This document shows positions 11,816 through 36,764 of a stretch of DNA of 64,000 bases, in pieces. The translations under genes and the position numbers were made by a program. Source of the stretch: Alistipes sp. (GTDB lineage: Bacteria > Bacteroidota > Bacteroidia > Bacteroidales > Rikenellaceae); assembly GCA_017398555.1 (NCBI GenBank), contig JAFQFV010000008.1, positions 1 to 64,000 of the forward strand, written 5' to 3'. A model generated the notes under the pieces. That model saw nothing but the letters and a program-made list of their open reading frames with translations, had not been told where the DNA came from and searched no databases. The number at the start of each line of letters is the position of its first letter. Positions within the stretch are counted from its first letter, which is position 1.

Positions 11816-13105
11816 CTATCTTGATGTGTATGGGCCGTGGATAGATTTAACTCGATACTCAAAGTTGGTATCGTCGAGCATATAGACATTAAATGTATCG
11901 CCGCCCTTAGCTACACGCAAAACGATGTGTCCATTATAACCGGCAACCTTGTTATAGAGTTCTTTATTGGCTGCCACAGCATTTTCGTGGCCATTGGTTG
12001 TAAAGAAATCCTTAACCCAGAATGGGAATGGCGCAACATTGTTGAGCACATTGTTGAGCATATCCGGATTTGGCTGACCTTGATACATACTACAGTTCAA
12101 AACCACGCGAGGATTGAAGTTATACTCCTGCATCTTTGAGCCCCAGCTATTAGCGCCGAGGTGGTGGTGTGTCTTGAATGCATCGAGTTTTGCATCGCCA
12201 ATAAAGTCACGATAGTATGCAGCAAACAGGTTCTGACTTGTACTTGTAAGGTCACCACAAGCGACATAGTCAAACTTACCGTATGTAACATGGAAACCAC
12301 AGCAAGATGGATTACCCTTAGCCGACTTTGAGCCACCAAGATAGCCGTTACCCTGACCATTTTTTGCCCAAACAAAACCGTTAGCACAGATATTAAAGAC
12401 CTTAAAGTCCTTGTGAGCATCCTTATTATAGAGCATTACCATCTGCTCTGTACCAGGAGTAAAACGAGCACCTGTAAATTTACCCTCTTTAACACCCCAA
12501 GTTACAAACTTACCCCAATCCTCAGCAAGTCCGCCATCCAATGCAGGTGTTACATCATCCTCTACGTAACCCGGATAGGCATTGTCAATCACGTGAGAAT
12601 ACGGCACCAAGTCAAAAAGAGCCAAAAGACCCGCCTTACGATAACCAACAGGAGAGGTCTCTGTAGCCACCTCAGGCTGACCGATATGGTCAATGTGGAA
12701 GTGCGAAGGGGCACAATAGTCAATAGCGTTCTGACCTTGAGGCAGGAAGTGCTTGATATAACGAGCGTATGTCTCGTATGGACGAATAGATGAGTTTGGA
12801 CGCTGTGGGCATGGGCCATCACCATAAGTCAAAGTCAGCTCACCGGCATCTACGAGCATTGTTGTTCCATCAGGGAAGATATAGAAACAGCACTCGCCTC
12901 GACCAGAGTTGATAAAGTGAATGTCAAAACAGCCCTCCTCCCAATCAGGAAGAACATCTCCTACAGCAATTGTCTGACCCGGTGTCGGAGTTGGTGTTGG
13001 CTTTGTGCCTAAATCATCCTCCCACGGCATCTCGCCATTACTACCGCCACCGCAAGCGACTGCAAGCAGCGCAAAAAGTGGTAAAATCCAAAGAATCTTT
13101 TTCAT
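11816..13105 (-). CDS. ComEC-like MBL-fold lipoprotein 1 of tandem triplet
   Basis: 429 residues, lipoprotein signal (LLAVAC-GGG), a linker with M-P-W-E-D-D-L-G and Pro/Thr repeats, then an MBL domain. It opens D-I-H-F-I-N-S-G-R-G-E-C with P-D-G-T-T-M-L-V-D-A-G, the layout of the MBL domain of ComEC/Rec2. The zinc motif is S-H-F-H-I-D-H (H135, H137, D139, H140), followed by A-C-G-D-L-T and K-T-H-H-H-L-G. It is the last of three paralogues spaced three bases apart, downstream of SusC/SusD, and the most divergent of the three. Family members outside ComEC have varied or unknown substrates; phosphodiester cleavage is a guess from the fold. Confidence 0.8.
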   Translation of the reverse strand: MKKILWILPLFALLAVACGGGSNGEMPWEDDLGTKPTPTPTPGQTIAVGDVLPDWEEGCFDIHFINSGRGECCFYIFPDGTTMLVDAGELTLTYGDGPCPQRPNSSIRPYETYARYIKHFLPQGQNAIDYCAPSHFHIDHIGQPEVATETSPVGYRKAGLLALFDLVPYSHVIDNAYPGYVEDDVTPALDGGLAEDWGKFVTWGVKEGKFTGARFTPGTEQMVMLYNKDAHKDFKVFNICANGFVWAKNGQGNGYLGGSKSAKGNPSCCGFHVTYGKFDYVACGDLTSTSQNLFAAYYRDFIGDAKLDAFKTHHHLGANSWGSKMQEYNFNPRVVLNCSMYQGQPNPDMLNNVLNNVAPFPFWVKDFFTTNGHENAVAANKELYNKVAGYNGHIVLRVAKGGDTFNVYMLDDTNFEYRVKSIHGPYTSR

Positions 13106-13108
13106 AGT

Positions 13109-14404
13109 TTATTTGTAATTATAATATGGTCCATCAATTCGTTTTACCTTATACTCGCTATTCATATCATCAAGAGTATAGACCATAAAACTCTCGCCAC
13201 CCTTTGCTACACGGATAACGATATGTCCGCTTGTGGCGTTACACTTGATATAGTCCAGCGGATACTGCTCAATAAGGCTCTCGCCTACGCTTGTGCAATA
13301 GATATCGCAGCCGCCCTCTGTAATGTAGCCAAACTTATCCTTATCAGGCTGTTCCTTACGTACATAGAAACTTGTTGCAACAAGCACCTGCGGTTTGAGG
13401 ACATTCTGCGCCTTCTCACGATTTGAGTGCGGAGAGAGGTGGTGGTGAGCCTTTGTAGCCTCGACCTGACCAACAACCTCAGCCACGGCATACTCATAGT
13501 CGTAGTAGTCGCCAATATCGCCCGCAGTGAGGAAGTCAAAGTCGCCATAGCGGATAACAAAACCGCACGATGCGGCATTCTCAGCCTTTGCTGCGCCCTT
13601 TTGTGCATAGATATCCACAGACTGATTATTCTTCCAGATGCAGCAGTTTGCACAGACATTCTCAATACGGAAGTTTGGATATGCTGCCGCATTATACTTC
13701 ATTGCAAACTGGTTTACAGCACCGAGCTTGAACTGCGAAGCTCGCAGAGCATTGCGACCTACGTGATAATCGGTAAACTTACGATAGTTTGCAAGAGCTG
13801 CCTCGCTCATACTATTAACCTTCAGACCATCATAGTTACCGTATGCGCGGTCAATAACCTCTATAAATGGGATGTGGTGGTAGAGAGCCGTAACTCCTGC
13901 AAGGGTATAAGTTCCTGTCTCATCCTTGGTGTACTCCTTCTCCAAATTACCCATATGGTCCATATGGAAGTGGGAGATGTGCATATAGTCAATAGCGCTC
14001 TTACCACGAGGCAGGAAGTGCTTGATATAGTCGCCATAAATCTTTGTCGGACGCACAGTGGCGTTAGGTCGCTGAAGAACATTCTTATACTCGCTTGTCT
14101 CGCGGCTAAACTCGCCTGCATCGACAACCATTGTTGTTCCGTCAGGCAGTATGAAGAACAGACACTCGCCACGACCCGTGCTGATGGTGTGGATATCGAG
14201 TTCACCCTCGCTCCACGCTGTAAGAGTATCTCCAACCTCTACTGTAGGGGTATTCGGGTTATCCGGTGTAGGATTTTCAGGTTCCGGCTGTGGCTTTTGT
14301 TGCTCGCCCTTACCCAAATCATCCTCCCACGGCATCTTAACGTCGTCACCGCCACACGAGAGAGCAAAGAGCGCTAATGGTAAAATCCAAAGAATCTTTT
14401 TCAT
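13109..14404 (-). CDS. ComEC-like MBL-fold lipoprotein 2 of tandem triplet
   Basis: 431 residues, lipoprotein signal (LFALSC-GGD), the same M-P-W-E-D-D-L-G tag after the lipid anchor as copy 1, and a Pro/Glu/Asn-rich linker to about residue 58. The catalytic domain has D-I-H-T-I-S-T-G-R-G-E-C, V-V-D-A-G-E, S-H-F-H-M-D-H (H145, H147, D149, H150), L-T-A-G-D-I-G-D-Y-Y and K-A-H-H-H-L-S-P-H-S. All residues expected to hold two zinc ions are present. It ends three bases before copy 1 begins. It is closer in sequence to copy 3 than to copy 1. Confidence 0.8.
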   Translation of the reverse strand: MKKILWILPLALFALSCGGDDVKMPWEDDLGKGEQQKPQPEPENPTPDNPNTPTVEVGDTLTAWSEGELDIHTISTGRGECLFFILPDGTTMVVDAGEFSRETSEYKNVLQRPNATVRPTKIYGDYIKHFLPRGKSAIDYMHISHFHMDHMGNLEKEYTKDETGTYTLAGVTALYHHIPFIEVIDRAYGNYDGLKVNSMSEAALANYRKFTDYHVGRNALRASQFKLGAVNQFAMKYNAAAYPNFRIENVCANCCIWKNNQSVDIYAQKGAAKAENAASCGFVIRYGDFDFLTAGDIGDYYDYEYAVAEVVGQVEATKAHHHLSPHSNREKAQNVLKPQVLVATSFYVRKEQPDKDKFGYITEGGCDIYCTSVGESLIEQYPLDYIKCNATSGHIVIRVAKGGESFMVYTLDDMNSEYKVKRIDGPYYNYK

Positions 14405-14407
14405 CTT

Positions 14408-15610
14408 TTACTCACATTTGAAAGGTCCGTCAATTCTCTTTACACGATACTTGCTATCTGTATCGTCAAGAGTATAGACCATATAACTATCGCCCTTAGG
14501 GGCTACGCGAATAACGATATGTCCGCTTGTGGCCTTGCAAACGGCATACTCCTTCGGATACTGCTCAAGAAGGCTCTCGCCAACGCTTGTGCAGTATATG
14601 TCGCAGTCTAAATTGTCGATATATCCGAACTTACTCTTATCTGGTTGTATGTCACGCACATAGAAGCTTGTAGCAACGAGTGTCTGTGGACTAAGCACCT
14701 CTATAGATGGCTGGCACATAGAGTGCGGCGAGAGGTGGTGATGAGCCTTTACGGCCTCAACCTCTCCTACAGCCTCCGCTACACGAAGCTCAAGGTCGTA
14801 ATAGTCGCCAATATCGCCCGCTGTAAGGAAGTCAAACTTACCATAGCGGACAACAAAACCACAAGAGGCAGCATTTTCACGAATCTTATCGCGAATACCC
14901 TCATAGACATCCACAGCCTTGCCATCGCTCCAAACGTAGCCGTTTGAGCAGATATTCTCAATCTTCAAATTCGGATATGCCGCAGCGTTATGCTTCATTG
15001 CAAACTGATTTACTGCACCAAGCTCGAACTGCGACGCCTTAATATTGCCCTTTGCCACGTGATAGTCCAAGAACTTCTTGTACTCATCCATAACCTTTAC
15101 GCTCATAGCCTTAACCTTGAGCGAATCGTAGGCACCATAAGCGCGGTCGATAACCTCACGGAACGGCACCTGATGGTAGAGCGCCATAACACCTGTAAGG
15201 GTGTAGTCGCCCTCTGCACACTTTGTATATTCAGGCTCCATATTACCCATGTGGTCCATATGGAAGTGTGAGAGGTTGAAATAATCCACCGCATCGTATG
15301 GGTTAAAGTGACGAATATAGTCGCCAAAGGCCTTTGTAGGGCGCGTCTGAGCATTTGGACGCTGAAGTACATTTTTATACTTCTTACCCTCGCGACTAAA
15401 TTCGCCCGCATCGACTACGATAGACGTACCGTCGGGCAGTATAAGGAATATACACTCGCCACGACCCGTACTGATAGTATGGATATCGAGGTAACCCTCA
15501 CTCCACGCCGGCAGAGTACGACCCTTGCGAGCCTTTTTGCCGTTGTAGCTGGCGGTGAGAGTTACCACCGCCAGACACAATGACAGAATAAAAATTAAAC
15601 TTCTCTTCAT
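14408..15610 (-). CDS. ComEC-like MBL-fold protein 3 of tandem triplet, no lipobox
   Basis: 400 residues. It has a signal peptide, but no Cys follows the hydrophobic core (V-T-L-T-A-S-Y-N-G), and the linker and W-E-D-D tag of its two neighbours are missing, so it is predicted to be a soluble exported protein. The MBL core is intact: H115, H117, D119, H120 in S-H-F-H-M-D-H, then L-T-A-G-D-I-G-D-Y-Y-D and K-A-H-H-H-L-S-P-H-S. It is the first of the three MBL genes, starting two bases after the stop of the surface lipoprotein at 15612. Confidence 0.8.
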   Translation of the reverse strand: MKRSLIFILSLCLAVVTLTASYNGKKARKGRTLPAWSEGYLDIHTISTGRGECIFLILPDGTSIVVDAGEFSREGKKYKNVLQRPNAQTRPTKAFGDYIRHFNPYDAVDYFNLSHFHMDHMGNMEPEYTKCAEGDYTLTGVMALYHQVPFREVIDRAYGAYDSLKVKAMSVKVMDEYKKFLDYHVAKGNIKASQFELGAVNQFAMKHNAAAYPNLKIENICSNGYVWSDGKAVDVYEGIRDKIRENAASCGFVVRYGKFDFLTAGDIGDYYDLELRVAEAVGEVEAVKAHHHLSPHSMCQPSIEVLSPQTLVATSFYVRDIQPDKSKFGYIDNLDCDIYCTSVGESLLEQYPKEYAVCKATSGHIVIRVAPKGDSYMVYTLDDTDSKYRVKRIDGPFKCE

Positions 15611-15611
15611 T

Positions 15612-17342
15612 TTACTTTACGTAAATTGGACGAATAGAAAAACGTGCCATAGAACCATAGTTAAAGGTTCCTGTATTATTTCCGCTTGAACGAAGACCAG
15701 AATTGAAGAACGCCTCATTCTCTACTGTTCCATCTGCATAAATACGATGGATAACACCGAAGCCATTACCAGCCTCAGAGTTCTCATTTACGGTAGATGT
15801 ACGATAGAATGCCTGTGTACCTACCTTATAGATATTATACTCAGTGTTGTTATAACCACGACCTGTACAAGGGAGGAAGAGACCAACAGTCAAATCTTCT
15901 ACGCTAAGGCTCTTTGTACCCTCTACAAGACCTGGAGCAGCATCTGCCGCCGGGTTATAGTAGTAGATACCCAAAATATTGTTGTATGTAGCAACAGTGT
16001 AGCATGAGTTAGCATAGAGAGTTGCAAACTCAGCAGCTGTAGGCATACGATACTGACCGTTAGATGCCCAATATGCAATATCGCCATACTTTGCAGCTGC
16101 AAAATCTGTAGTCTCAGCTGTGCAAGCGCTATCGCTATACATCTTACCACTAAAGTCAAATGCCGGAGTACCTGCAATTTGTACAGCCTTAGTAGCATCG
16201 ATAGAGGCATAATCCTCAATACCGCCAAAGTTAAAGTGTGCGACCTTGTTATAATCAGTCAAGTTCTTCAAATCGCCAGATACACCCATATTGAAGTGGT
16301 GCTCCTGACTTGGTGCAATACGCCAACCTGTAGCAAAGTTCTCATCAGTTGTACCGTTAAGCTCATACTCAAGGTTACCCATTGCCCACTTGATACCTGC
16401 AACAGTTACATAATCAGGCATCTCTACCGGTGCATCACTACCAATACCCGCCATATTTACAGTAAAGGCTGTAATCTCGCCAGAGACAAGCTCCATAGCC
16501 TTTGGCAGTGTAATCTCCTTGGTGTAGCTATTGTCATTGTTTGTAACAACAGTAACGGAGCACTTCTCGCCTGCATCAAGAGTTGTTGGCCATACGGACA
16601 TATAGTAGCTAAAGTCGCCTGTCTGTGCCTCAGGAAGTGTCACACTAACAGATGTAGCCGGAGTTGCTACCTCTGACTGAGCGAGTGGATAGTTGCCCGC
16701 TACAAGGTCAGAAATCATCATCTTGGTAATCTTACCTGCGAGAGGCTTATCGCAAGAGAATGTTACGCTCTTTACAGCATCACCCTCAGCGAGTGCAAGG
16801 TTCTTGATAGATACCTTTGCAAGCGCTGTCACGCGTGCCATCTCAAAATTAACAGTCTCTGTTGGCTGCGCTGCAAGCTCTACGCCCTTTGACAGAATAA
16901 GGTCTGCAAGTGGGTCATAAGTATTCATTGCAGTAGGAGCCTGAGCACTTGGCAGAGTAAATGCCAAATATGTTCCTGCGCCATTCATAGAGGCGTTGTT
17001 GTGCGAGAGAACATAGATATAAGAGTCGGCTGTCTTTGCACTAAGTTCAAACTGAACTTTCACACTCTTACCACCCTCTGCAAGGGTTGTGTTAGGGTTA
17101 TTTCCCTTTGCACTTGTTCCGCCGGTAACAGTAACCTCATAGAGCTCGATGTAGTCGCCTGCTACCCACTCTGCGTGGTACTTTCCGTCCTCCTCTACAA
17201 GAACGCTACGTGACTGCGGAGCGTCAGCAGTTGCAGAAAAAACAACCTTACCCTCCGAATTATTGATAGTGATCTCCTCACTCTGCGAGCAAGCTGTAAA
17301 TGCAGCTGCTGCAACAAGAATAGATGTAATAAACTTCTTCAT
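15612..17342 (-). CDS. surface lipoprotein: fimbrillin-like domain plus YWASxGQYRMP domain
   Basis: The start is set at MKKFITSILVAAAAF (17342), giving 576 residues with lipobox TAC-S. A longer frame would run through the small peptide gene in another phase. Residues about 20-290 resemble Mfa/fimbrillin-like domains. Residues about 310-576 hold a module with G-I-K-W-A-M-G-N-L, D-I-A-Y-W-A-S-N-G-Q-Y-R-M-P-T-A-A-E-F, L-P-C-T-G-R-G-Y and the ending R-F-S-I-R-P-I-Y-V-K, which recalls the Fibrobacter major paralogous/DUF1566 group, probably carbohydrate- or ligand-binding. The same module occurs twice in the lipoprotein upstream. Its start codon lies 13 bases after the stop of the EAGFA peptide. 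Confidence 0.75.
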   Translation of the reverse strand: MKKFITSILVAAAAFTACSQSEEITINNSEGKVVFSATADAPQSRSVLVEEDGKYHAEWVAGDYIELYEVTVTGGTSAKGNNPNTTLAEGGKSVKVQFELSAKTADSYIYVLSHNNASMNGAGTYLAFTLPSAQAPTAMNTYDPLADLILSKGVELAAQPTETVNFEMARVTALAKVSIKNLALAEGDAVKSVTFSCDKPLAGKITKMMISDLVAGNYPLAQSEVATPATSVSVTLPEAQTGDFSYYMSVWPTTLDAGEKCSVTVVTNNDNSYTKEITLPKAMELVSGEITAFTVNMAGIGSDAPVEMPDYVTVAGIKWAMGNLEYELNGTTDENFATGWRIAPSQEHHFNMGVSGDLKNLTDYNKVAHFNFGGIEDYASIDATKAVQIAGTPAFDFSGKMYSDSACTAETTDFAAAKYGDIAYWASNGQYRMPTAAEFATLYANSCYTVATYNNILGIYYYNPAADAAPGLVEGTKSLSVEDLTVGLFLPCTGRGYNNTEYNIYKVGTQAFYRTSTVNENSEAGNGFGVIHRIYADGTVENEAFFNSGLRSSGNNTGTFNYGSMARFSIRPIYVK

Positions 17343-17355
17343 AGCTCTGCATTTT

Positions 17356-17487
17356 TTATAATTCATCACCATAATCATTAAAACCAATATCGCCACCAGG
17401 GGTACCTGCGCCATAGCTGGTAGCAAAGCCTGCCTCTACCTTAACATCCTCTACAGAGAGGTAAGGGCTCTGATAATCTCTTTTCAT
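17356..17487 (-). CDS. EAGFA-type small peptide, copy 2
   Basis: This 43-residue frame starts MKRDYQSPYL and ends NDYGDEL. It shares Y-x-S-P-x-L-x7-E-A-G-F-A-x-S with the peptide at 3990-4124, at identical spacing, and a Gly/Asp-rich acidic tail. It has no signal sequence. It lies between a terminator-like hairpin (17523-17552) and a surface lipoprotein gene whose ATG is 13 bases past the peptide stop, so translational coupling is likely. The length is below usual annotation cut-offs. The conserved motif in two unlinked places, each directly before a fimbrillin-like lipoprotein gene, is the main evidence that it is a real gene. Confidence 0.72.
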   Translation of the reverse strand: MKRDYQSPYLSVEDVKVEAGFATSYGAGTPGGDIGFNDYGDEL

Positions 17488-17514
17488 CTCTGATTTTTAG
17501 TTTTAGATTTATAT

Positions 17515-17552
17515 AAAAAGGTACTCTGCGCCCGCAAATTTGGGCGCAGAGT
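17515..17552 (-). terminator. intra-operon terminator or attenuator hairpin
   Basis: An 11-bp stem ACTCTGCGCCC (17523-17533) pairs with GGGCGCAGAGT (17542-17552), followed on the minus strand by five T (17515-17519). It sits between the two-domain lipoprotein gene and the EAGFA peptide. I see no TTTG promoter before the peptide, so downstream genes probably depend on read-through, which would lower their expression relative to SusCD. Confidence 0.75.
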
Positions 17553-17561
17553 GAGATTTAA

Positions 17562-20093
17562 CTATTTTACCTTTACAGGACGGATAGAGTAACGAGCCTT
17601 AGCATCCCATGCTGCATTGTAGAATGCACCATTAAGACCCTTAGAGTTCTTCTCGCTCTCTGTCATTTGATCTACACGATAGATAACTGCGTTAGTAGCA
17701 TCAAGTGTAGAGTTAAGGTTAATGGTTGAGGTACGGTAAGGACCCTGTGCACCAATATTGTTCACAGCATAGTCATTAGCAGCATCTGATACCTTATTAA
17801 AACCACGACCTGCATAAGGTAAGAACAAGCCGACAGCCAGGTCTGCATTCTTAATCACGCGAGGAGAATCTACCTCTACAGCACCTGCGCTCTCACCAGA
17901 ACCCGGATTGTAGAAGTATGTACCATTTACAGTAACACCCTCAGCAGTTATGTAGGTAGCCTTTACACGGCAAGAGCTGTCATAGAGCTGCTTGAACTCT
18001 GCTGCGGTTGGCATACGATACTGACCCTTTGATGCCCAGTAAGCAATATCGCCAAACTTAGCAGCTGCAAAATCTGTAGTCTCGCTTACGCAACCCTGAT
18101 CGGTGTACATCTTACCACTCAAGTCAAATGCAGGCTCTGCAGTAGCTTTTTGAACTGAAGCGGTAGCGTCACAGCTGAATGGATTCTCAATACCTCCGTA
18201 GTTGAACACACTAGTACAGTTGAAGTTCTCAAGATCGGTCTTATTTCCGCTCACACCCATATTAGGGAAGATAAACTGCTGTGCTGAAATGCTCCAACCC
18301 TCAGCATAACCTGTACCTGTCTTACCTACCTCATAAACGAGGTTACCGGTTGCCCACTCAATACCACCAACGGTTACTGTAGCATTTGTTGGCAGTGGAG
18401 TTGTGTCCGGACCCGGCTCTGGCTCTGGCTCTGGCTCTGGATCCGGAGTTGGAGTTGGAGGAGTTACAGCACCTGAACCGCTTACATATACAGGACGGAT
18501 TGAGTAACGAGCTGTAGCACCATAGTTCAGAGGGGTCTTATCTGTATATGCACCCTCGGTCAGCTTCATAATTCGGTAGATGATACCGTAAGAGATATCC
18601 TTTGTAGATACTGCATCTACAGTAGAGGTACGATATACACCCTGCGAGTTAATCTTATAGATATAAGACTCTGCAGTATTCTTATAACCACGACCTGTCC
18701 AAGGCAAGAACAGACCTACAGCCAAATCATCAGCAGTAAGCTCCTTAGTATTCACTTCATCAACCATTGGCTCCTCGCCCCATGCCGGATCGTAGAAGTA
18801 TGTACCTGCAACATTGTTATAAGTAGCAGCTACGCGAGATGCCTTAGTGTAGAGAGCCTCAAACTCCTCAGCTGTAGGCATACGATACTGACCACAAGAT
18901 GCCCAATAAGCAATATCACCAAACTTAGCAGCAGCAAAGTCGGTAGTCTCACTCTGGCAACCCTGATCTGTGTACATCTTACCGCTAAAGTCAAGCTTTG
19001 AAGAGCCATCAATAGAGGCTGCATCGGCAGCAAGACCATTAAATGGATTAGCAATACCACCATAGTTAAAGTGTGCTACCTTATCGTAACCGTAGTCAGG
19101 GGTTGTGCCCTTCATATCGCCATCAACGCCGATATAGAAGTGGAACTCCTGGCTTGCAGAGATGCTCCAATCCTTAACAAAGCCGTTACCGGTAGCACCA
19201 TCCTTCTCATACTGGAGGTTACCAAGTGCCCAGTAGATACCTGCAACATTTACAGTACCTGCGATTGGCTTCGGTTTCTCAGCCTCCATCGGTGCCAACT
19301 CAATCTGATAGTCGAGAAGAAGTCCGCGTGAAGCTGCGATAAGAGAGCCCAGAACAACCTCGCTAATCTTCTTACCATCCTTATTATAAGCAGTAGCGGT
19401 GATGTGTGAGTAGTTGCCAACAGGGAGTGCAAAGAATGCATTTACCATAGTTGGAGCTGCCTCAGCAAATGAGATAGTCACTGTAGCATCACCATCTGTA
19501 GCAGCTGTACCGGTAGTCATACCGTCAGGAAGAGTTACAGAGTGAAGACCTGAGAGGTTCTTATCAGAGCTAAATACGATAGAGCCTGTCTCAGGAGCGA
19601 GTTTATTAATCTGAACATTAGCATAAGCTGTAAGCTGCTTGAATGTCACCTCATTCTTCTCATCAATAACACCTGCCATAAATGCGCAAGAGCCTGTAGG
19701 AGAAGGTGTAATCTGAGCAGGGAGCTCAACAGAGAGGGTCTCGCCAGAGAGCTCTGCTGATGTAGGATAGAGTGCATACTCGCCTACTGACTTACCCTCC
19801 AAAGTGCCTGTAAAGAGTGCACGACGAGTCTCGCCTGTGCCGTCGATATTAAACACTGCTGTAGAGCCATCATTACAAACGACCTTAATAGCATCATTTG
19901 CCTGCCAACGAGCCTCACCTGTAGCTACGAGTGACGCACGGCTATCAGCATTCTCAATAGATGCCAACAGGGTCACATTACCTGTCTTATTTGTATCAGG
20001 CTGGAACTCAGAGATGCCATCATCCTGGGTACAACCCACTGCCAACGCCATTACAGGCAGGCAGTAGCACAAATATTTGAATATCTTTTTCAT
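17562..20093 (-). CDS. surface lipoprotein with duplicated YWASxGQYRMP domain
   Basis: 843 residues, lipobox AVGC-T (C21). A fimbrillin-like part spans about 25-270. Then come two copies of the same module (about 283-535 and 568-843), each with G-I-x-W-A-x-G-N-L, D-I-A-Y-W-A-S-x-G-Q-Y-R-M-P-T-A, L-F-L-P-x-x-G-R-G and the ending R-Y-S-I-R-P-V. A Pro/Glu-rich linker (about 539-564) joins them. It follows susD by 20 bases. In utilisation loci this position is normally held by a surface glycan-binding protein (SusE/SusF or SGBP), and this is the probable role. Ligand unknown. Confidence 0.78.
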   Translation of the reverse strand: MKKIFKYLCYCLPVMALAVGCTQDDGISEFQPDTNKTGNVTLLASIENADSRASLVATGEARWQANDAIKVVCNDGSTAVFNIDGTGETRRALFTGTLEGKSVGEYALYPTSAELSGETLSVELPAQITPSPTGSCAFMAGVIDEKNEVTFKQLTAYANVQINKLAPETGSIVFSSDKNLSGLHSVTLPDGMTTGTAATDGDATVTISFAEAAPTMVNAFFALPVGNYSHITATAYNKDGKKISEVVLGSLIAASRGLLLDYQIELAPMEAEKPKPIAGTVNVAGIYWALGNLQYEKDGATGNGFVKDWSISASQEFHFYIGVDGDMKGTTPDYGYDKVAHFNYGGIANPFNGLAADAASIDGSSKLDFSGKMYTDQGCQSETTDFAAAKFGDIAYWASCGQYRMPTAEEFEALYTKASRVAATYNNVAGTYFYDPAWGEEPMVDEVNTKELTADDLAVGLFLPWTGRGYKNTAESYIYKINSQGVYRTSTVDAVSTKDISYGIIYRIMKLTEGAYTDKTPLNYGATARYSIRPVYVSGSGAVTPPTPTPDPEPEPEPEPGPDTTPLPTNATVTVGGIEWATGNLVYEVGKTGTGYAEGWSISAQQFIFPNMGVSGNKTDLENFNCTSVFNYGGIENPFSCDATASVQKATAEPAFDLSGKMYTDQGCVSETTDFAAAKFGDIAYWASKGQYRMPTAAEFKQLYDSSCRVKATYITAEGVTVNGTYFYNPGSGESAGAVEVDSPRVIKNADLAVGLFLPYAGRGFNKVSDAANDYAVNNIGAQGPYRTSTINLNSTLDATNAVIYRVDQMTESEKNSKGLNGAFYNAAWDAKARYSIRPVKVK

Positions 20094-20113
20094 AATTTTT
20101 TAATTTTAGAGGT

Positions 20114-21922
20114 TTAGTAACCAGGATTGTTATTAGCCTCGCCAATCAGAGGATTAGTAATCATCTCGCTGTATGGGAATGGCCACAACTCATCCTTATT
20201 CAACTTAAAGGTAAGTGTTGTGTGAACACGGTAGTTAGCCTTTGCGTCTTTGAAAGTCTTAGTAGGCTCGTATGTTACAATCCAATTCTCATCAATCTGA
20301 GGAACAAGGTTAAACGCTGTATTACCTGTTGAAGATGCGCCAAATGCAGGAGCGTACTGTGGGCCATTCATAGCCTTGTATGCCAATGGATTGCCATCTG
20401 CACCCTTCCAACGACGGATATCGAACCAACGGAAGCCCTCGCAGCAGAGCTCAACCTTACGCTCATAGCGAAGTGCTGTACGAAGACCGGCCTGATCTGT
20501 AACAGTTACCGGAGGCATACCTACACGAGCACGGATGCGGTCGATATTTGCCTTTGCTCGAGCAAGGTCACCACCCTCCATCTCAATATTTGCCTCAGCA
20601 TCGATAAGCAGAAGCTCCGCAAGACGCATGATAGGTACATCCAGTTCATCCTCATAATCCTTACCAGGAACGCTTGCATAGTACTCCATATTGAGGTACT
20701 TACGCCACAAGTAACCACCAGGACCCTTTGTGCCGTTTGGACCATACTCACTCTTATTACCTGTTACATCACCATTAGGAACAGCCTTACCGATGTTATA
20801 GTCAAAGACGGTCTTATCTGCAGGGTCAGTAGAGAACTGAACGCCCATAGCGCGTGCGCCTGAACGCAAGCAGAACAGGTCAAGACGTGGGTCACGATCC
20901 TTCCAAGGGTTCTTCCAATCGTACTTTGGTGACTCTGCGATAGAGAGACCATCAACACACTGGAAAGTATCGATAAATGACTGTGATGGACCTACAGCAG
21001 CTGAACCATTGTGTACACGTGAACCGTGTGAATAGATACCCTGGTGAGTATTACTTGCTGCAAGACGATCGAACTGAATAGCCCAAATCCACTCTGTAGA
21101 GTTTTTCTCTGCATCATAACCGAAGAGAGGTGTTGGATTAGGCTCACCATCGGCGTGTGTAGCGTAATATGTGCAGTCCAGCGGAGTGAGGTCATAAACA
21201 CCCGCCGCCAGGTCAAGAGCAATCTTTGAGTACTTTGCGGCATCTGCGTAGAAGCCCCACTCAAGGCAGATACGAGCCTTAAGCATATAAGCACCTACAC
21301 GACCGATACGGCATGTGCCCCAAGTTGCCTTATCCCAAGCAATTGGCAGATGGTTGAGAAGCTCATCGTCAAGGTCACGAAGGATGTTTGCAATAACCTC
21401 AGCCTTAGGGGTACGAGCATAAGAGTAGTCGTCCAAAGTCAGAGCATGGTCAACCCACGGCATATCGCCATAAATCTTACAACCCTTGTCGTACTGATAA
21501 GCGCGAAGGCAGAGAAGCTCAGCCTTAAACTGGTAGTACTGCTCGTCTGTAACCACACCACGAAGGTTATCAAGGTTATCAAGCACCAGGTGAACACGGC
21601 CGATTGCCTTATATATACGTGCGTAGGTGTTCTCTACGTGTGAAAGGTTTGATGTAACAGTTGACAAACCAAAGTTTGGCCAGCTTGAGAGAGTGGTTCG
21701 CATAGCACCAATATCAGAGAGCTGATCGTACCAACGATCTCCCGGATTGTACTGGTGAATATCATTTGCAAGGCTCTTGTATGCAGCAAGCAGACCTGCT
21801 TCAGCCTCCTCAGCACTTGCAGGGAAGGTGCCGGTAGATGGTCCGGTAAGCGGCTCGCGATCAAGAGTACAGCTGCTCAAAAGAACCACCGACAAAAGGA
21901 TAGTTATAATATTCTTTTTCAT
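20114..21922 (-). CDS. susD: SusD/RagB-family outer-membrane lipoprotein
   Basis: 602 residues, lipobox LLSSC-T. N-terminal T-F-P-A-S-A-E-E-A-E-A-G-L-L-A-A-Y-K-S-L is the typical start of the TPR-like SusD fold. The C-terminal half has R-L-A-E-L-L-L-I-D-A-E-A-N, the L-R-Y-E-R-K-V-E-L-C-C-E-G-F-R-W-F-D-I-R-R-W segment and the closing L-W-P-F-P-Y-S-E-M-I-T-N-P signature. The protein caps the SusC channel and binds the ligand at the cell surface. It starts 14 bases after susC. Confidence 0.93.
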   Translation of the reverse strand: MKKNIITILLSVVLLSSCTLDREPLTGPSTGTFPASAEEAEAGLLAAYKSLANDIHQYNPGDRWYDQLSDIGAMRTTLSSWPNFGLSTVTSNLSHVENTYARIYKAIGRVHLVLDNLDNLRGVVTDEQYYQFKAELLCLRAYQYDKGCKIYGDMPWVDHALTLDDYSYARTPKAEVIANILRDLDDELLNHLPIAWDKATWGTCRIGRVGAYMLKARICLEWGFYADAAKYSKIALDLAAGVYDLTPLDCTYYATHADGEPNPTPLFGYDAEKNSTEWIWAIQFDRLAASNTHQGIYSHGSRVHNGSAAVGPSQSFIDTFQCVDGLSIAESPKYDWKNPWKDRDPRLDLFCLRSGARAMGVQFSTDPADKTVFDYNIGKAVPNGDVTGNKSEYGPNGTKGPGGYLWRKYLNMEYYASVPGKDYEDELDVPIMRLAELLLIDAEANIEMEGGDLARAKANIDRIRARVGMPPVTVTDQAGLRTALRYERKVELCCEGFRWFDIRRWKGADGNPLAYKAMNGPQYAPAFGASSTGNTAFNLVPQIDENWIVTYEPTKTFKDAKANYRVHTTLTFKLNKDELWPFPYSEMITNPLIGEANNNPGY

Positions 21923-21936
21923 AATCGCAATGTGTT

Positions 21937-24900
21937 TTAGAATTTAATCTCTGCACCGAATGTATATGTGCTACAAAGTGGATAGTTGTTACCAATTTGA
22001 CCGGTTGTTGCACCCTGTGAACCGCTCTGGTAAGCTGTCTCAGGATCGTAACCATCGTAGTAGTCACTAATTGTGAAGAGGTTTGTAGCATTAGCGTATA
22101 CCATCAGACCCTTAATCTTCATAGCCTTAATAATCTTCTTAGGGAAGGTATAGCTGAGCTGGAGGTTCTTCAGACGGCAGTATGCGCCATTTGCCATCCA
22201 GAATGTAGATACCTTCTTATTAAGGTCTGCCTGATATGAAAGACGTGGATACTTAGCATCTGTATTCTCCGGAGTCCAGTTGTCAAGGTGGCTCTTCTGG
22301 AAGGTACCACCGCTAACACATGGCTGAGTATATGCACCGCTGATATAAGCATCTGCCATACCTACGCCCTGGAACTGTGCGCTAAGGTTGATACCCTTCC
22401 AACCTACGTTCAGTGTAAGACCGTAAGTGTAACGAGGGATAAGTGAGCCTACAATCTGCTTATCCTTATCATCAATCTTATTATCCTTATTAAAGTCCTC
22501 ATATACAAGGTCACCAGGATGTGTTATCTGACCATACTGTGGGCAGTTTGCATTTACCCAGTCAGCCTGCTCCTGAGTCTGAACGATACCAAGGCAATTA
22601 AGCAGATAGAGTGAGTTGATAGATGAGCCCTCCTGGTTGCGGATAACGCCGCTTGTACCGTAAGTACCCTTCATATCGACAATCTCATTGATTACATCAG
22701 AGAGGTTTGCCTGTACGCCAAATGACCAATCGCCCCAACGATTATTGTAACCCAAAGCGACCTCCCAACCGTTGTTTGTTACAACACCGGCATTCTGATA
22801 AGGTGCGTTAAGACCGATTGTAGATGGGATATCAAGCTGCATAAGGATACCGTCAGTCTTCTTGTAGTAGTAGTCAGCAGTGATAGTGAACTTCTCCCAC
22901 AATGTCATATCGATACCGATGTCAGCCATATAGGTAGTCTCCCAAGTGATGTCCTTATTTGCAAGTGAAGTCTGTGCAACTATAGGATAAATCTTACCTG
23001 CAGCAGCGATAGAAGAGATGGTAAGCATCTGTGCTGTAGGATAGTTGCTACCGATGTTCTGGTTACCCAGAGTACCGTAAGATGCACGAATCTTAGCCTC
23101 TGTAATCACATCGCGAGTGCTATCCATAAATGCCTCCTCTGAAAGACGCCATGCAGCAGAGAATGATGGGAACAGACCCCAACGATTCTTCTTTGCAAAA
23201 CGAGAAGAGCCATCATAACGGAGGTTAGCCTCGAACAGATAGCGGTTATCGTAGTTATAGTTGATACGACCGAAGAATGATGCAAGGGCAATCTGACTGC
23301 GGCTACCGCTATTGTCCTTAAACTCGTTCTTACCACCGGCGTCAATAACGTCGTACTGCGGATAAGAGAAGTCCTGACGATATGCGCCGAGGCTTGCATA
23401 CTCATAGTTCTCATAAGATACACCGGCAAGGAACTTAAGATTGTGCTTACCGAAGCTGTGAGCCGCTGTGAGCATACCGTGGTAGTATCCGTTGAAGGTT
23501 GTTGCGATACTCTCGTCAAGAGAGTTGAACTCAACATTTGAGATAGGAGAGATAGAACCGTAAGGGTCTGAGTGATACTCAACCATATCCTTAAAGAGGT
23601 GATTCTTTGTAGCTGTGAGCTGTGGAGCAACCTTAGCCTCGAGAGTGAGCCACTTTACAGGCTTGTACTCCAGAACGATAGAGGTCTTGAGGTTGAGCTT
23701 CTGATAGTGACGATTACCGCCCAAGTTCTGCTCAATCATCGGCAGTGGGTTGGTAGTACCACCGGTAAATGGTGCGTAGCTGCCATCAGACCACTGTGCA
23801 AGCATAACAGGGTCCTTCGCATTCATAAATGAGAAGATACCGCCCTGATATGGGTTAATCTCACGGTTTGAGTATGTACCTGAGATATCGAAACTAAACT
23901 TGAGTTTCTTGTGGAGCTGAACGTCGAGGTTGTTACGAAGGTTGAAACGACGGAATGATGCATTCTTGATGATACCATTCTGGTCGAGGTATCCGAATGA
24001 TGACATATTGCGGATACGGTCTGTGCCGGCAGACATTGTTACGATATGGCTATGAGTAAAGCCATTACCTGTCAGCAGGCGCTTCTGCCAATCGATGATT
24101 GGATATGCATCAGGGTCAAGGAAGTTGTTCTTACGATAAGCAGCGATATACTCAGGAGTGTATGTGAGCTTTGTAAGGCCATCGTTTGCCTCGGCAATAC
24201 CCTGAAGGGTCATAAACTCCTCAGGACCAACTACATCCGGATAGACAACAGGCTCCTGCCAACCAACATAACCACGATAAGTTACACCGAACTTATCCTT
24301 ACCTGCACGCTTTGTGGTAATCAGAATTACACCATTAGCAGCACGTGAACCGTAGATAGCAGCAGAAGCCGCATCCTTAAGTACTGTAATCTGGTCAATC
24401 TGAGAGGCATCAACAGAGTTCATATCGCCCTCAACACCGTCAATGAGAATCAGTGGAGCGCAGTCTGAACCACCGAATGAACCGATACCACGAATCTGAA
24501 TGTTACCGGTATCTGCACCCGGAGCACCACCCGCTGTAGTAACAGTCACACCCGGAGCAATACCCTGAAGTGCTGTTGAGAGCTGGGTAATTGGACGAGA
24601 GGTGAACTCCTCGGTAGATACTGAAGATACAGAACCTGTCAGGTTCACCTTCTTCTCTGTACCGTAGCCGACAACAACTACCTCCTCCACAGCCTGACTA
24701 TCAACAGTAAGCTGTACTTTGTAAACAGATTTCTGAGCTGTGATGGCTACCCTCTCACTCTTATATCCCATAAATGAGATATCGAGAGACTGACCCGGCT
24801 CAGCCGAAATTGAAAACGAACCTGAAAGGTCAGTAGTAGTACCCCCCCCCAAGATCTTCTCGCCGCTCATAATTACAACAGAAGCACCAATCATAGGAGC

Positions 24901-25020
24901 ACCATTCTCATCGACAACGGTACCCTGTACAGATACTTTCTGTGCAAAGGCGGACAAACTGAAACAACAAGCAAGGAGCAACAGAAGTTGTCTTGCCGCA
25001 AAATGTAGCAGTTTTTTCAT
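21937..25020 (-). CDS. susC: SusC/RagA-family TonB-dependent transporter with G9 tract
   Basis: 1027 residues: signal peptide (cut at AFA-QKV), carboxypeptidase-regulatory-like domain (about 29-105), TonB-box region V-E-E-V-V-V-V-G-Y-G, plug domain with A-S-A-A-I-Y-G-S-R-A-A-N-G-V-I-L-I-T-T-K, and a 22-strand barrel ending in F-G-A-E-I-K-F. It imports a ligand captured by the SusD next to it. Residues 57-60 are encoded by nine consecutive G (24842-24850 on the plus strand are C). A slip of one base would shift the frame early and abolish the product, so the tract could act as an on/off switch. The transcript has a leader of about 110 bases. Confidence 0.94.
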   Translation of the reverse strand: MKKLLHFAARQLLLLLACCFSLSAFAQKVSVQGTVVDENGAPMIGASVVIMSGEKILGGGTTTDLSGSFSISAEPGQSLDISFMGYKSERVAITAQKSVYKVQLTVDSQAVEEVVVVGYGTEKKVNLTGSVSSVSTEEFTSRPITQLSTALQGIAPGVTVTTAGGAPGADTGNIQIRGIGSFGGSDCAPLILIDGVEGDMNSVDASQIDQITVLKDAASAAIYGSRAANGVILITTKRAGKDKFGVTYRGYVGWQEPVVYPDVVGPEEFMTLQGIAEANDGLTKLTYTPEYIAAYRKNNFLDPDAYPIIDWQKRLLTGNGFTHSHIVTMSAGTDRIRNMSSFGYLDQNGIIKNASFRRFNLRNNLDVQLHKKLKFSFDISGTYSNREINPYQGGIFSFMNAKDPVMLAQWSDGSYAPFTGGTTNPLPMIEQNLGGNRHYQKLNLKTSIVLEYKPVKWLTLEAKVAPQLTATKNHLFKDMVEYHSDPYGSISPISNVEFNSLDESIATTFNGYYHGMLTAAHSFGKHNLKFLAGVSYENYEYASLGAYRQDFSYPQYDVIDAGGKNEFKDNSGSRSQIALASFFGRINYNYDNRYLFEANLRYDGSSRFAKKNRWGLFPSFSAAWRLSEEAFMDSTRDVITEAKIRASYGTLGNQNIGSNYPTAQMLTISSIAAAGKIYPIVAQTSLANKDITWETTYMADIGIDMTLWEKFTITADYYYKKTDGILMQLDIPSTIGLNAPYQNAGVVTNNGWEVALGYNNRWGDWSFGVQANLSDVINEIVDMKGTYGTSGVIRNQEGSSINSLYLLNCLGIVQTQEQADWVNANCPQYGQITHPGDLVYEDFNKDNKIDDKDKQIVGSLIPRYTYGLTLNVGWKGINLSAQFQGVGMADAYISGAYTQPCVSGGTFQKSHLDNWTPENTDAKYPRLSYQADLNKKVSTFWMANGAYCRLKNLQLSYTFPKKIIKAMKIKGLMVYANATNLFTISDYYDGYDPETAYQSGSQGATTGQIGNNYPLCSTYTFGAEIKF

Positions 25021-25166
25021 AGGTGTAATTTTTAATGTTTAATAAATAGGTTTTGGTTTATTTCAAACTCTAATTTGCCACCATTTTGAGGTATTTTTCG
25101 CGCATAATTGTACACATATACGCGCGCACCCTTTACAAAGATAGGTAAGAGCTATTAAACATCCAA
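25021..25166 (-). promoter_or_regulatory. susC promoter and long 5' leader
   Basis: TATCTTTG on the minus strand (25136-25143) has TTG at 25164-25166, 20 bases upstream. Transcription should start near 25131, leaving about 110 untranslated bases, unusually long here. The leader contains the imperfect inverted repeat CGCG-CATA ... TATA-CGCGCG (about 25100-25127). Confidence 0.65.
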
Positions 25167-25330
25167 ACTTTTTACCCAATTTTCATCACTTTTTTTGCAA
25201 AATAGTCTTTTATTGATTACAAAAATTTTATTATGCTCAAATTCCCTATTAATAAACAATAGCAAACAAAAGAAAAATGAAAAGAAAGCCAAAAGGAAAA
25301 TAGAGTGGGGCGATTCGTTGTAAATGACAA

Positions 25331-25396: not shown

Positions 25397-26242
25397 CTAC
25401 TCCTTCTTACGATATTTTGCTCGGATTTTAGTTGGAGTATCGCCCAAATATTTCTTACAATACTCGCCCAAATGGCTCGACGATGAGAAACCATACTTCT
25501 TCGAGATATAGTAGATTGGAGCATCTGTCTCAGTCAAGTCGGCAAGCACCTCATCCTTACGCTGAATCTGCATCCAAACACCAGGGGTATAGCCCGGATA
25601 GTGGCGGCGGAAGACAACATTAAACGTATTAATATCGTAACCACAAAGTTCGGCAAGATGGTTAAGGTTTCGAGCCTTTACGCGGTTACCCTCGACCATA
25701 GTTCTGAACGACACTGTATGGTCAAACAGATTGAAGAACAGTTGCGCCAAATCCTCCACATCATAGTAGAAACGGAAGACAATAAAGAGCATCTCTATAG
25801 CAGACTCGTGCATATGTGCACAAGGGATACCGTCATCAAGATAGCGCGAAATAAGTTTCAAAAACTCAGCCAATTGCTCATTTACAGGGTAAGAGTCAAA
25901 GTGATACTCAAAATCGGGCTGACCCTTCGCATACTGCAACAAAGAGGCGATATCACACGCCGCACCGGGACGTGAGAAGTATGCTACAATAATCTCTATA
26001 TCTCCCTGAGGGATAAGCTCATAGTGGCCGCAATTGTAGCAGAAAAAGAAGTTATTAGCCGTAACCGGAAAACCTCTGCGCTCCTCAGAGTTGATAAGCA
26101 GCGTTCCGGACATTACAAATACTAAATGGTGTACATCTCCAGGCTCGATAAAAAACTTGTCTCCAGACTTATACTGTCGATAGTAAAAACCCGCAAACGG
26201 ATCCTTTGCCGAAGGGCAAGATTTTGGGCAGAATTGTTTCAT
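25397..26242 (-). CDS. AraC-family transcriptional regulator
   Basis: 281 residues. The N-terminal cupin-like half (F-F-I-E-P-G-D-V-H-H-L-V-F-V-M-S-G-T-L-L) would sense an effector. The C-terminal half carries two helix-turn-helix motifs: L-N-H-L-A-E-L-C-G-Y-D-I-N-T-F-N-V-V-F-R-R and I-Y-Y-I-S-K-K-Y-G-F-S-S-S-S-H-L-G-E-Y, then the G-D-T-P-T-K-I-R ending. It lies immediately upstream of susC, with its own promoter (TATTTTTG, complement of 26283-26290) and terminator. It is the obvious candidate activator of the susC operon, although AraC proteins are less usual in that role than SusR, hybrid two-component or anti-sigma systems. Confidence 0.88.
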   Translation of the reverse strand: MKQFCPKSCPSAKDPFAGFYYRQYKSGDKFFIEPGDVHHLVFVMSGTLLINSEERRGFPVTANNFFFCYNCGHYELIPQGDIEIIVAYFSRPGAACDIASLLQYAKGQPDFEYHFDSYPVNEQLAEFLKLISRYLDDGIPCAHMHESAIEMLFIVFRFYYDVEDLAQLFFNLFDHTVSFRTMVEGNRVKARNLNHLAELCGYDINTFNVVFRRHYPGYTPGVWMQIQRKDEVLADLTETDAPIYYISKKYGFSSSSHLGEYCKKYLGDTPTKIRAKYRKKE

Positions 26243-35822: not shown

Positions 35823-36764
35823 CTACTCTTGTGATACGACAAACGAATCTATATAGAGGAATACGCGGCGATTAGTATCGGTTTCGAGCCAGATTACAGG
35901 GTTGATAAGTCCGTCGATACGGCGATACTTATCTACTGCGGTAATTTTATGGCCGCGCAGATCGAATATCTTATTTTGGCACTGCATCTCGACATACTCC
36001 TTGTCGATAATATCGACCTTCAGACGGAGATACTGCCAATTAATCTTGCAGTCGGTCTCGTTATAGATAAGGTTTTGTGTTCCATTCGGCACATCCTTAT
36101 AGCCTGCGTGGTAGCCATCAGGGCGACGCTCGCCAAACCACCAGCAGTCCACGCCCCACTTGCACCAATCGCCATCAAGGCCGAAAGCCCAATCCTTATC
36201 TGTGCCTGGGGTTGCCTGGATATACTGCCACTTGCGCATAGGTTTGCCATCTACCGTATTGAGGTAGCGGATACCCCAGAAGAAACGGTTGCCGTCATCC
36301 TGCGTATCGGAGCCTATACCGAAGGCGCGAATAGAGTCCTCGTGCAGACCCGGCTGTTCGCCCTCTCCATCCACCTCATTCTGCTCGCCCGTATATGCAA
36401 ACCAGCACTCAAGCTGCAAATAGCGAGCATTTGGATCCATATTTGATAGTCGCTTGATAGCGTGACCCATAGAGCCCGGAGCAGGTGGCATGGAGTATGG
36501 ATTTGCCACGGGGCGTGTAGAGAGTTTAAGAGAGTAGGTGCCCGACATTGAGCCGTGAGTGCCAGGGAAACGGTATGTGGCCGAGCTGAGCATTACAGGC
36601 GGCCACTGGTCTTTATTGACCTTTGTCGGCGGAACATCGAAATCGGGATGCTCCGTAAAGTTTGGCAAAAGCACCATCCATCCATTAAAGCCGCGATCGA
36701 AGATATCGTAACACAGCACCCTTTTGAGTGGGTTGAAGCGGCTGTAAAGCATAATCTTATCCAT
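35823..36764 (-). CDS. unknown 313-residue protein, lectin-like beta fold suspected
   Basis: No signal peptide and no motif I can assign to an enzyme. It is rich in Trp and Tyr. Segments such as Y-L-Q-L-E-C-W-F-A-Y, W-Q-Y-L-R-L-K-V-D-I-I-D-K-E-Y-V-E-M-Q-C and the closing R-R-V-F-L-Y-I-D-S-F-V-V suggest a concanavalin-like sandwich of the kind used to bind or cut sugars. Its start overlaps the end of the FAD oxidoreductase gene by eight bases, so the two are translationally coupled. Confidence 0.6.
   Translation of the reverse strand: MDKIMLYSRFNPLKRVLCYDIFDRGFNGWMVLLPNFTEHPDFDVPPTKVNKDQWPPVMLSSATYRFPGTHGSMSGTYSLKLSTRPVANPYSMPPAPGSMGHAIKRLSNMDPNARYLQLECWFAYTGEQNEVDGEGEQPGLHEDSIRAFGIGSDTQDDGNRFFWGIRYLNTVDGKPMRKWQYIQATPGTDKDWAFGLDGDWCKWGVDCWWFGERRPDGYHAGYKDVPNGTQNLIYNETDCKINWQYLRLKVDIIDKEYVEMQCQNKIFDLRGHKITAVDKYRRIDGLINPVIWLETDTNRRVFLYIDSFVVSQE

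What the first reader, a model, noticed from the sequence alone, without database searches (positions are those of the whole stretch)
11816..25166. SusCD operon whose only enzymes are three tandem ComEC-like MBL proteins
Seen: one minus-strand string of SusC, SusD, duplicated-domain lipoprotein, 43-residue EAGFA peptide, single-domain lipoprotein, then three MBL paralogues spaced two to three bases apart, with an AraC gene upstream. No glycoside hydrolase, lyase, sulfatase or protease is included. Known: SusCD loci normally pair with enzymes that cut the imported polymer; ComEC-type MBL domains act on DNA or other phosphodiesters. Inference: the locus may harvest a non-glycan polymer (extracellular DNA, teichoic-type phosphodiester or a lactone/phospho-glycan). 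This is the best candidate here for an undescribed utilisation system.
Basis: partly seen in the sequence, partly recalled or inferred. Interest (0 to 1): 0.82.

Follow-up and report, generated by a model that had tools for sequence, protein, structure and literature searches.

The report
SusCD importer locus with phosphodiesterase-like enzymes
A gut bacterium related to Alistipes carries a conserved nutrient-import gene cluster whose only enzymes resemble phosphate-bond cutters rather than sugar-bond cutters, so it probably feeds on a phosphate-linked molecule (for example teichoic-acid-like or lipid head-group material) instead of an ordinary polysaccharide.

Summary
The operon is real and conserved: SusC-SusD-lipoprotein-(43-aa peptide)-lipoprotein-MBL-MBL-MBL recurs in nine other Alistipes-type genomes. 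Of 59 loci with this MBL family, 23 have SusC upstream. The AraC gene has no homologue before SusC in five relatives.

The MBLs keep a two-metal motif (positions conserved in 86-91 of 91 sequences). Their nearest solved relative is pneumococcal teichoic-acid phosphorylcholine esterase (E 7.6e-8); ComEC is weaker (3.5e-4). In four lineages the transporter-MBL locus also holds a glycerophosphodiester phosphodiesterase (8 of 26 transporter loci, 1 of 33 other MBL loci). Others carry phosphonate- or nucleoside-type genes.

Best reading: a SusCD locus for a phosphodiester-linked nutrient, the MBLs being exported phosphodiesterases. The substrate is unknown. DNA uptake is not supported.

SusCD loci for organic phosphorus (PusCD) and a TonB/phosphodiesterase system for a sugar phosphodiester are published, so this is a new variant of a known kind.

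The parts
21937..25020 (-). SusC, TonB-dependent outer-membrane transporter
   Evidence: TIGR04056 E 1.5e-280; nearest solved chains 8aa4 (E 7.8e-137) and 5t3r (1.4e-104), RagA 6sli weaker (1e-76); 83-95% identical in nine relatives, several of them read only in part
20114..21922 (-). SusD, surface lipoprotein partner of SusC
   Evidence: PF07980 E 5.7e-45; 69-84% in nine relatives
17562..20093 (-). LP1, lipoprotein with a doubled C-terminal domain; position of a surface binding protein
   Evidence: lipobox-like MALAVGC then TQDD; no Pfam family and no solved relative; homologues in all nine relatives, with one or two domain copies
17356..17487 (-). 43-residue EAGFA peptide gene
   Evidence: homologue at the same place in 9 of 9 relatives
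15612..17342 (-). LP2, lipoprotein with one copy of the domain
   Evidence: Met start inferred at 17342
14408..15610 (-). MBL3 (alpha clade), predicted exported phosphodiesterase; no lipobox cysteine in this copy
   Evidence: PF00753 weak; alignment A1; tree; start of protein
13109..14404 (-). MBL2 (alpha clade), predicted lipoprotein phosphodiesterase
11816..13105 (-). MBL1 (beta clade), predicted lipoprotein phosphodiesterase
   Evidence: no Pfam hit alone but 43% to MBL2 with the metal motif intact
25136..25167 (-). Bacteroidota-type -33/-7 promoter-like element (TTTG...TATCTTTG) upstream of SusC; the consensus is recalled
   Evidence: similar element 63-90 bp before SusC in L120, L121, L122, the one in L120 with a change in the -7 part
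25397..26242 (-). AraC-type regulator; neighbour, not a conserved part
   Evidence: PF12833 E 7.4e-12; no homologue upstream of SusC in L120-L124
35823..36764 (-). DUF6772 gene of a separate three-gene cassette; possible downstream module (guess)
   Evidence: PF20562 E 4.3e-81; 61% to the DUF6772 protein of the L100 SusCD-GDPD-SSS-MBL locus
36757..38073 (-). FAD-dependent oxidoreductase of the same cassette
   Evidence: PF12831 E 6.4e-104; 30% and 35% to the L100 and L081 partners
38045..39784 (-). sodium:solute symporter of the same cassette
   Evidence: PF00474 E 2.7e-29; 50% to the L100 symporter

Best explanation
A SusCD-type utilisation locus for a phosphodiester-linked nutrient. LP1, LP2 and SusD hold the substrate at the cell surface and SusC imports it (inferred from family and position). 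The three MBL proteins are exported two-metal phosphodiesterases (inferred from the intact metal motif and the nearest relative) that cut the substrate outside the cell or in the periplasm, releasing a phosphate-bearing head group or a polyol/sugar phosphate. Phosphomonoesterases and sodium symporters, encoded elsewhere in this genome and next to the locus in some relatives, would finish the job. Likeliest substrate class: a glycerol/polyol or sugar phosphodiester such as teichoic-acid-type polymer or deacylated lipid head groups. Shown: the operon, its conservation, the metal motif, recurrent phosphoester-related neighbours in relatives. Inferred: enzyme activity, substrate, cell location.
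For: Conserved cassette in nine relatives. Profile of 34 MBLs against PDB: phosphorylcholine esterase 1wra E 7.6e-8, 12qj 1.1e-7, 2bib 4.4e-7; ComEC-type 9ic4 3.5e-4, 30bt 0.0074. Metal motif kept in 86-91 of 91. GDPD (PF03009, E 1.5e-23 to 3.3e-19 in L019/L072, L073, L075, L100, L101, L114; G101 and G1347 copies) on the same strand in 8 of 26 transporter-MBL loci, four lineages, against 1 of 33 other MBL loci, that one on the opposite strand. In L073-L075 the strand upstream of SusC (read as L126-L128) carries FAD oxidoreductase, SSS symporter, Zn-alcohol dehydrogenase, PfkB kinase and a histidine acid phosphatase whose solved relatives include inositol-phosphate phosphatases, and the operon ends in GDPD. 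L100, outside this class, has SusC, SusD, GDPD, SSS, MBL, DUF6772, FAD oxidoreductase, a piece of Zn-ADH, a mannitol-dehydrogenase-family enzyme and PfkB. L114: SusC-SusD-MBL with an MFS protein most like phosphoglycerate/glycerol-3-phosphate antiporters, below cut-off, and GDPD. L102 and L105: PbfA and HpnW above cut-off, PhnX-like below cut-off, phosphodiesterase-family (PF01663) proteins.
Against: The ten loci of the window's own type (window plus nine) have no GDPD within 8 kb of the MBLs; the link to phosphoesters comes from relatives and from the MBL itself. Similarity to the esterase is remote (about 35 bits). 36 of 59 MBL loci lack SusC upstream (six of those 36 are on short stretches), and L103 and L117 sit near genes that look sugar-related by eye. 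GDPD was picked out after looking, and this genome has eight GDPDs, so the enrichment flatters the link. 18 of 26 transporter loci have no GDPD nearby. SusC is nearest to solved chains that I recall as glycan importers.
Confidence: 0.6

Rival explanations
1. Phosphate-scavenging (PusCD-like) locus: the purpose is phosphorus under starvation, not carbon; the MBLs and unlinked phosphatases free phosphate from mixed phosphodiesters.
For: PusCD complexes in Flavobacterium are co-located with phosphodiesterases, phosphonate enzymes and organophosphate transporters (PMC8115612, passages read); L102, L105 and L114 resemble that.
Against: No alkaline phosphatase family in the window's operon. In L073-L075 and L100 the partners look carbon-catabolic (kinase, polyol-type dehydrogenases, symporter); two of those (L074, L075, read as L128, L127) have a LacI-type regulator by eye. 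Inorganic phosphate is plentiful in ruminant gut (recalled).
Confidence: 0.25
2. Ordinary glycan locus whose glycosidases are encoded elsewhere; the MBLs remove a phosphate or other substituent from that glycan.
For: SusC is closer to 8aa4 and 5t3r than to RagA, which I recall as glycan importers and a peptide importer; L020 has a PF00884 sulfatase before its SusC and a GH9 protein about 8 kb after its MBL.
Against: No glycosidase inside the operon of the window, nor seen by eye inside those of the nine relatives or of L072-L075.
Confidence: 0.2
3. Extracellular DNA or nucleotide utilisation, the MBLs being ComEC-type nucleases.
For: ComEC-type matches at E 3.5e-4 and 0.0074; in one relative, L104, an MBL follows a TonB-type barrel and is followed by an adenosine deaminase-related protein and a purine nucleoside phosphorylase-family protein.
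Against: ComEC is the weaker match; no nuclease or nucleoside gene was seen by eye in the operons of the window's type.
Confidence: 0.08
4. Lactonase or antibiotic-inactivating MBLs attached to a transporter.
For: The MBL fold includes lactonases and beta-lactamases (recalled); a weak hit of MBL3 to the AHM family (E 4.2e-5, 22.6 bits against a cut-off of 590).
Against: Far below cut-off; partner genes in several relatives are phosphoester-related; three co-transcribed exported copies fit nutrient use better (judgement).
Confidence: 0.04

Closest known systems
PusCD / phosphate utilisation systems of Flavobacterium (PMC8115612; passages read)
   Same: SusCD pair co-located with phosphodiesterases; some relatives of this locus also carry phosphonate genes and an organophosphate-type transporter
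   Different: enzymes there are named as other families (terms 'metallo' and 'beta-lactamase' gave 0 hits in the main text; supplements not seen); they are induced by phosphate limitation, unknown here; plant-associated rather than gut bacteria
Xanthosan uptake system XanT-XanP of Xanthomonas (PMC12807533; abstract and passages read)
   Same: outer-membrane TonB-dependent importer plus phosphodiesterase feeding on a sugar phosphodiester
   Different: XanP is a 2H-phosphoesterase, not an MBL; no SusD is mentioned in the passages read; the nutrient is made by an effector in the host
Pneumococcal teichoic-acid phosphorylcholine esterase Pce/CbpE (1wra, 2bib, 12qj)
   Same: MBL fold, same order of metal motifs, exported, acts on a phosphodiester (function from PMC4929436, passages read)
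   Different: remote similarity; no choline-binding module here; lipoproteins in a transporter operon
ComEC C-terminal MBL domain
   Same: shared fold and motif order; Pce was also the nearest structural template for ComEC (PMC5031224, passages read)
   Different: weaker profile match; no competence channel domain in these proteins
Canonical polysaccharide utilisation locus (Sus)
   Same: SusC-SusD-lipoproteins-enzymes in one operon
   Different: no carbohydrate-active enzyme in the operon

Membership tests
Canonical Sus-type PUL | adjacent SusC and SusD | tested here: met
Canonical Sus-type PUL | carbohydrate-active enzyme in the locus | tested here: not met
   no such Pfam or NCBIfam match in the operon's genes
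PusCD phosphate utilisation system | SusCD co-located with phosphodiesterase or phosphomonoesterase | tested here: inconclusive
   MBLs resemble a phosphodiesterase and some relatives have GDPD; activity not shown
PusCD phosphate utilisation system | induced by phosphate depletion | not testable with these tools
   no expression data
Pce/CbpE | two-metal MBL motif HxHxDH...D...H | tested here: met
   alignment and 86-91 of 91 sequences; which Pce residues bind zinc is recalled
Pce/CbpE | choline-binding repeat module | tested here: not met
   no Pfam domain other than a weak Lactamase_B; the MBL alignment runs to the C-termini
Pce/CbpE | phosphorylcholine esterase activity | not testable with these tools
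   needs assay
ComEC | transmembrane competence channel plus MBL | tested here: not met
   TIGR00361 14.9 bits against a cut-off of 190, matching only its last part; 400-431 aa proteins
Xanthosan-type system | TonB importer with 2H-phosphoesterase XanP | not tested
   no search with XanP was made; the enzyme in the window's operon is an MBL

The most novel reading that the evidence does not exclude
A dedicated gut SusCD system that feeds on teichoic-acid-like or glycosyl/polyol phosphodiester polymers, in which an undescribed Bacteroidota-wide family of exported Pce-like MBL phosphodiesterases (an alpha/beta pair, alpha later duplicated) takes the place of glycosidases, with GDPD plus polyol-catabolic genes completing the pathway in relatives.
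Probability: 0.3. Interest if true: 0.78.

Novelty: new variant of a known kind. Interest (0 to 1): 0.58.

Why it matters
SusCD loci are usually read as polysaccharide loci. If the MBLs are phosphodiesterases, a conserved set of loci in herbivore-gut Bacteroidales is a phosphodiester harvest system, possibly consuming Gram-positive wall polymers or plant lipid head groups. That would give a testable function to an unnamed MBL family and a new carbon or phosphorus route in the gut.

Tried and rejected
Set aside: DNA uptake (ComEC is the weaker profile match); a role for the AraC gene (no homologue in L120-L124); beta-lactamase or lactonase (22.6 bits against 590). LP1/LP2 gave no family: Pfam none at 0.01; of 13 family members scanned, the most shared weak hits were Trypan_PARP (6 members, best E 0.0021, probably low-complexity sequence) and Lcl_C (5 members, 0.0054); PDB one hit at 0.27. 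A binding role is inferred from position only. Inositol as the substrate was considered because of the acid phosphatase, but the kinase is closest to a fructokinase (2qhp E 2.7e-69), so it is not claimed. The chance estimate for GDPD proximity (P about 9e-5 for 4 of 11 lineages) used guessed GDPD counts and genome sizes for two lineages and a family chosen after looking; it is not relied on. Literature searches: among the papers listed, judged by title and start of abstract, none is on MBL enzymes in SusCD loci; four of these lists were capped (12 of 18, 15 of 78, 12 of 45, 10 of 36), and only open-licence PMC text was searched. PMC12406696 (passages) gave nothing on SusC.

Rows dropped: L106 and L107 (weak matches) were left out of the 59 loci. 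Of 36 matching genomes in the family search, at least one neighbourhood was fetched for 33 (window included; not G180, G196, G247); further matches within fetched genomes were not all read (e.g. G232 contig 26). L077, L080, L087, L096, L115 and L118 are on stretches under 14 kb, so a SusC may be missed there. The genome searches sampled larger groups and used different thresholds.
Full report
Observation. The minus-strand gene string is as described: SusC, SusD, a lipoprotein with a doubled domain (LP1), a 43-residue peptide, a single-domain lipoprotein (LP2) and three MBL proteins with gaps of 1, 3 and 3 bases before them. SusC and SusD are firm. Two MBLs match PF00753 weakly, under its cut-off, and the third not at all, but a 34-sequence alignment shows the same invariant motifs in all three. 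Two of the three window MBLs have a lipobox-type cysteine; the third (14408-15610) does not.

Conservation. A scan of GTDB contigs returned 14 loci, all from metagenome assemblies titled Alistipes, Rikenellaceae, Bacteroidales or Bacteroidia; 9 of the 14 titles name a ruminant host. Nine of them (L008-L016) carry SusC (83-95% identical, several cut by the end of the stretch), SusD (69-84%), LP1/LP2-type lipoproteins and three MBLs (four in L013) in the same order, with the small peptide in each. In whole-genome samples the MBL family was found in 36 of 250 genomes of the family (E <= 1e-15), 6 of 393 of the order (1e-30), 4 of 395 of the class (1e-30) and 9 of 395 of the phylum (1e-10, two of them weak), own genome included each time. 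Of 59 MBL loci examined, 23 have SusC upstream on the same strand within 8 kb; three more (L101, L104, L119) follow another TonB-type barrel (PF25183). So the association recurs, but the MBL family also lives elsewhere: for instance near a calcineurin-type phosphoesterase lipoprotein on contig C33 of this genome and in six of six relatives fetched for that locus.

Regulation. Five relatives read upstream of SusC show no homologue of the AraC gene. A Bacteroidota-type promoter-like element (consensus recalled) sits before SusC in the window and, with small changes, in three relatives. By eye, a LacI-type gene stands near the locus in L127, L128, L020 and L021; none was seen in L126.

The enzymes. 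The family profile matches pneumococcal teichoic-acid phosphorylcholine esterase best (1wra E 7.6e-8; 12qj 1.1e-7; 2bib 4.4e-7), ComEC-type chains less (9ic4 3.5e-4; 30bt 0.0074). With a single sequence as query the same esterase led but weakly (E 0.0067). HxHxDH, GD and HH line up with the esterase; in 91 sequences H145, D149 and H150 are kept in 90 (one gap), H147 in 86 (four D, one gap), D296, H321, H322 and H394 in 91. A FastTree tree, read without support values, puts MBL2 and MBL3 in one clade (alpha) and MBL1 in another (beta); both clades occur together in L021 and in L072-L075, which suggests an old pair and a later alpha duplication.

Neighbours in relatives. GDPD lies on the same strand within 8 kb in 8 of 26 transporter-MBL loci (L072-L075, L100, L101, L114, L119), four lineages, and in 1 of 33 other MBL loci (L097), there on the opposite strand (Fisher P 0.007, loci not independent; family chosen after looking). 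HMM support for GDPD: L019, the same locus as L072; L073, L075, L100, L101; L114; the copies in G101 (L074) and G1347 (L119) over the Pfam cut-off. By eye, one relative of the window's type (G198) has a GDPD-like gene about 2.5 kb before SusC on the other strand (L123). In L073-L075 the SusC gene is preceded on the same strand (L126-L128) by FAD oxidoreductase, SSS symporter, Zn-alcohol dehydrogenase, PfkB kinase and a histidine acid phosphatase (for L126: 7r5y E 2.9e-40; BtMinpp 4fdt 7.5e-30); the kinase is closest to fructokinase 2qhp. L100, from outside the class, has members of the same families, though its SSS and FAD oxidoreductase are only 23-25% identical to those of L127, so they are not close orthologues. 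L102 and L105 carry phosphonate-type genes: PbfA above cut-off (E 2.6e-218), HpnW above cut-off, PhnX-like below cut-off. L104 is a nucleoside-type locus. L103 and L117 look sugar-related by eye.

The window's own type lacks these neighbours. Eight GDPDs and four acid-phosphatase homologues at 30-34% identity are elsewhere in this genome. A separate cassette at 35823-39784 (DUF6772, FAD oxidoreductase, SSS symporter) matches three genes of the L100 locus at 61%, 30% and 50%. Whether it works with the SusCD locus is a guess.

Known systems. SusCD complexes co-located with phosphodiesterases and induced by low phosphate are described in Flavobacterium (PMC8115612, passages read). A TonB importer plus phosphodiesterase that feeds on a sugar phosphodiester is described in Xanthomonas (PMC12807533, abstract and passages read). 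In what I read neither uses an MBL. The searches listed no paper whose title or abstract start is on MBL enzymes in SusCD loci.

Verdict. A conserved SusCD locus with exported MBL enzymes that are probably phosphodiesterases; substrate class likely a phosphodiester, exact substrate open. It is a new variant of a known kind, with no biochemical proof.

Noticed in passing
window 17356-17487: The 43-residue EAGFA peptide is conserved at the same place in nine relatives with a PG-rich, EL-ending tail; a similar tail ends a lipoprotein in L014 (4143-5045). Function unknown.
   Followed up: partly
G000 contig C33 (L006 12928-15392): Two further MBL paralogues two genes from a calcineurin/PQQ lipoprotein; a homologue of that lipoprotein is also in L108-L113.
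   Followed up: partly
L013 12580-14595: A fourth MBL fused to an N-terminal domain that looks like a fimbrillin-type lipoprotein (by eye).
   Followed up: no
window 35823-39784: DUF6772, FAD oxidoreductase and SSS symporter cassette whose families recur in the L100 SusCD-MBL-GDPD locus.
   Followed up: partly
window 8537-11235: A protein that looks PHP-like by eye (no Pfam hit) and an EptA-type phosphoethanolamine transferase (PF08019) on the opposite strand just past the MBL end; both recur beside the MBLs in L012.
   Followed up: no
G000, eight places: Eight GDPD genes in a 2 Mb draft genome; only their immediate neighbours were looked at.
   Followed up: partly
L124 6208-7398: An integrase-like gene (by eye) just upstream of SusC in one relative, and flanks that differ between relatives, hint that the locus moves between genomes.
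   Followed up: no
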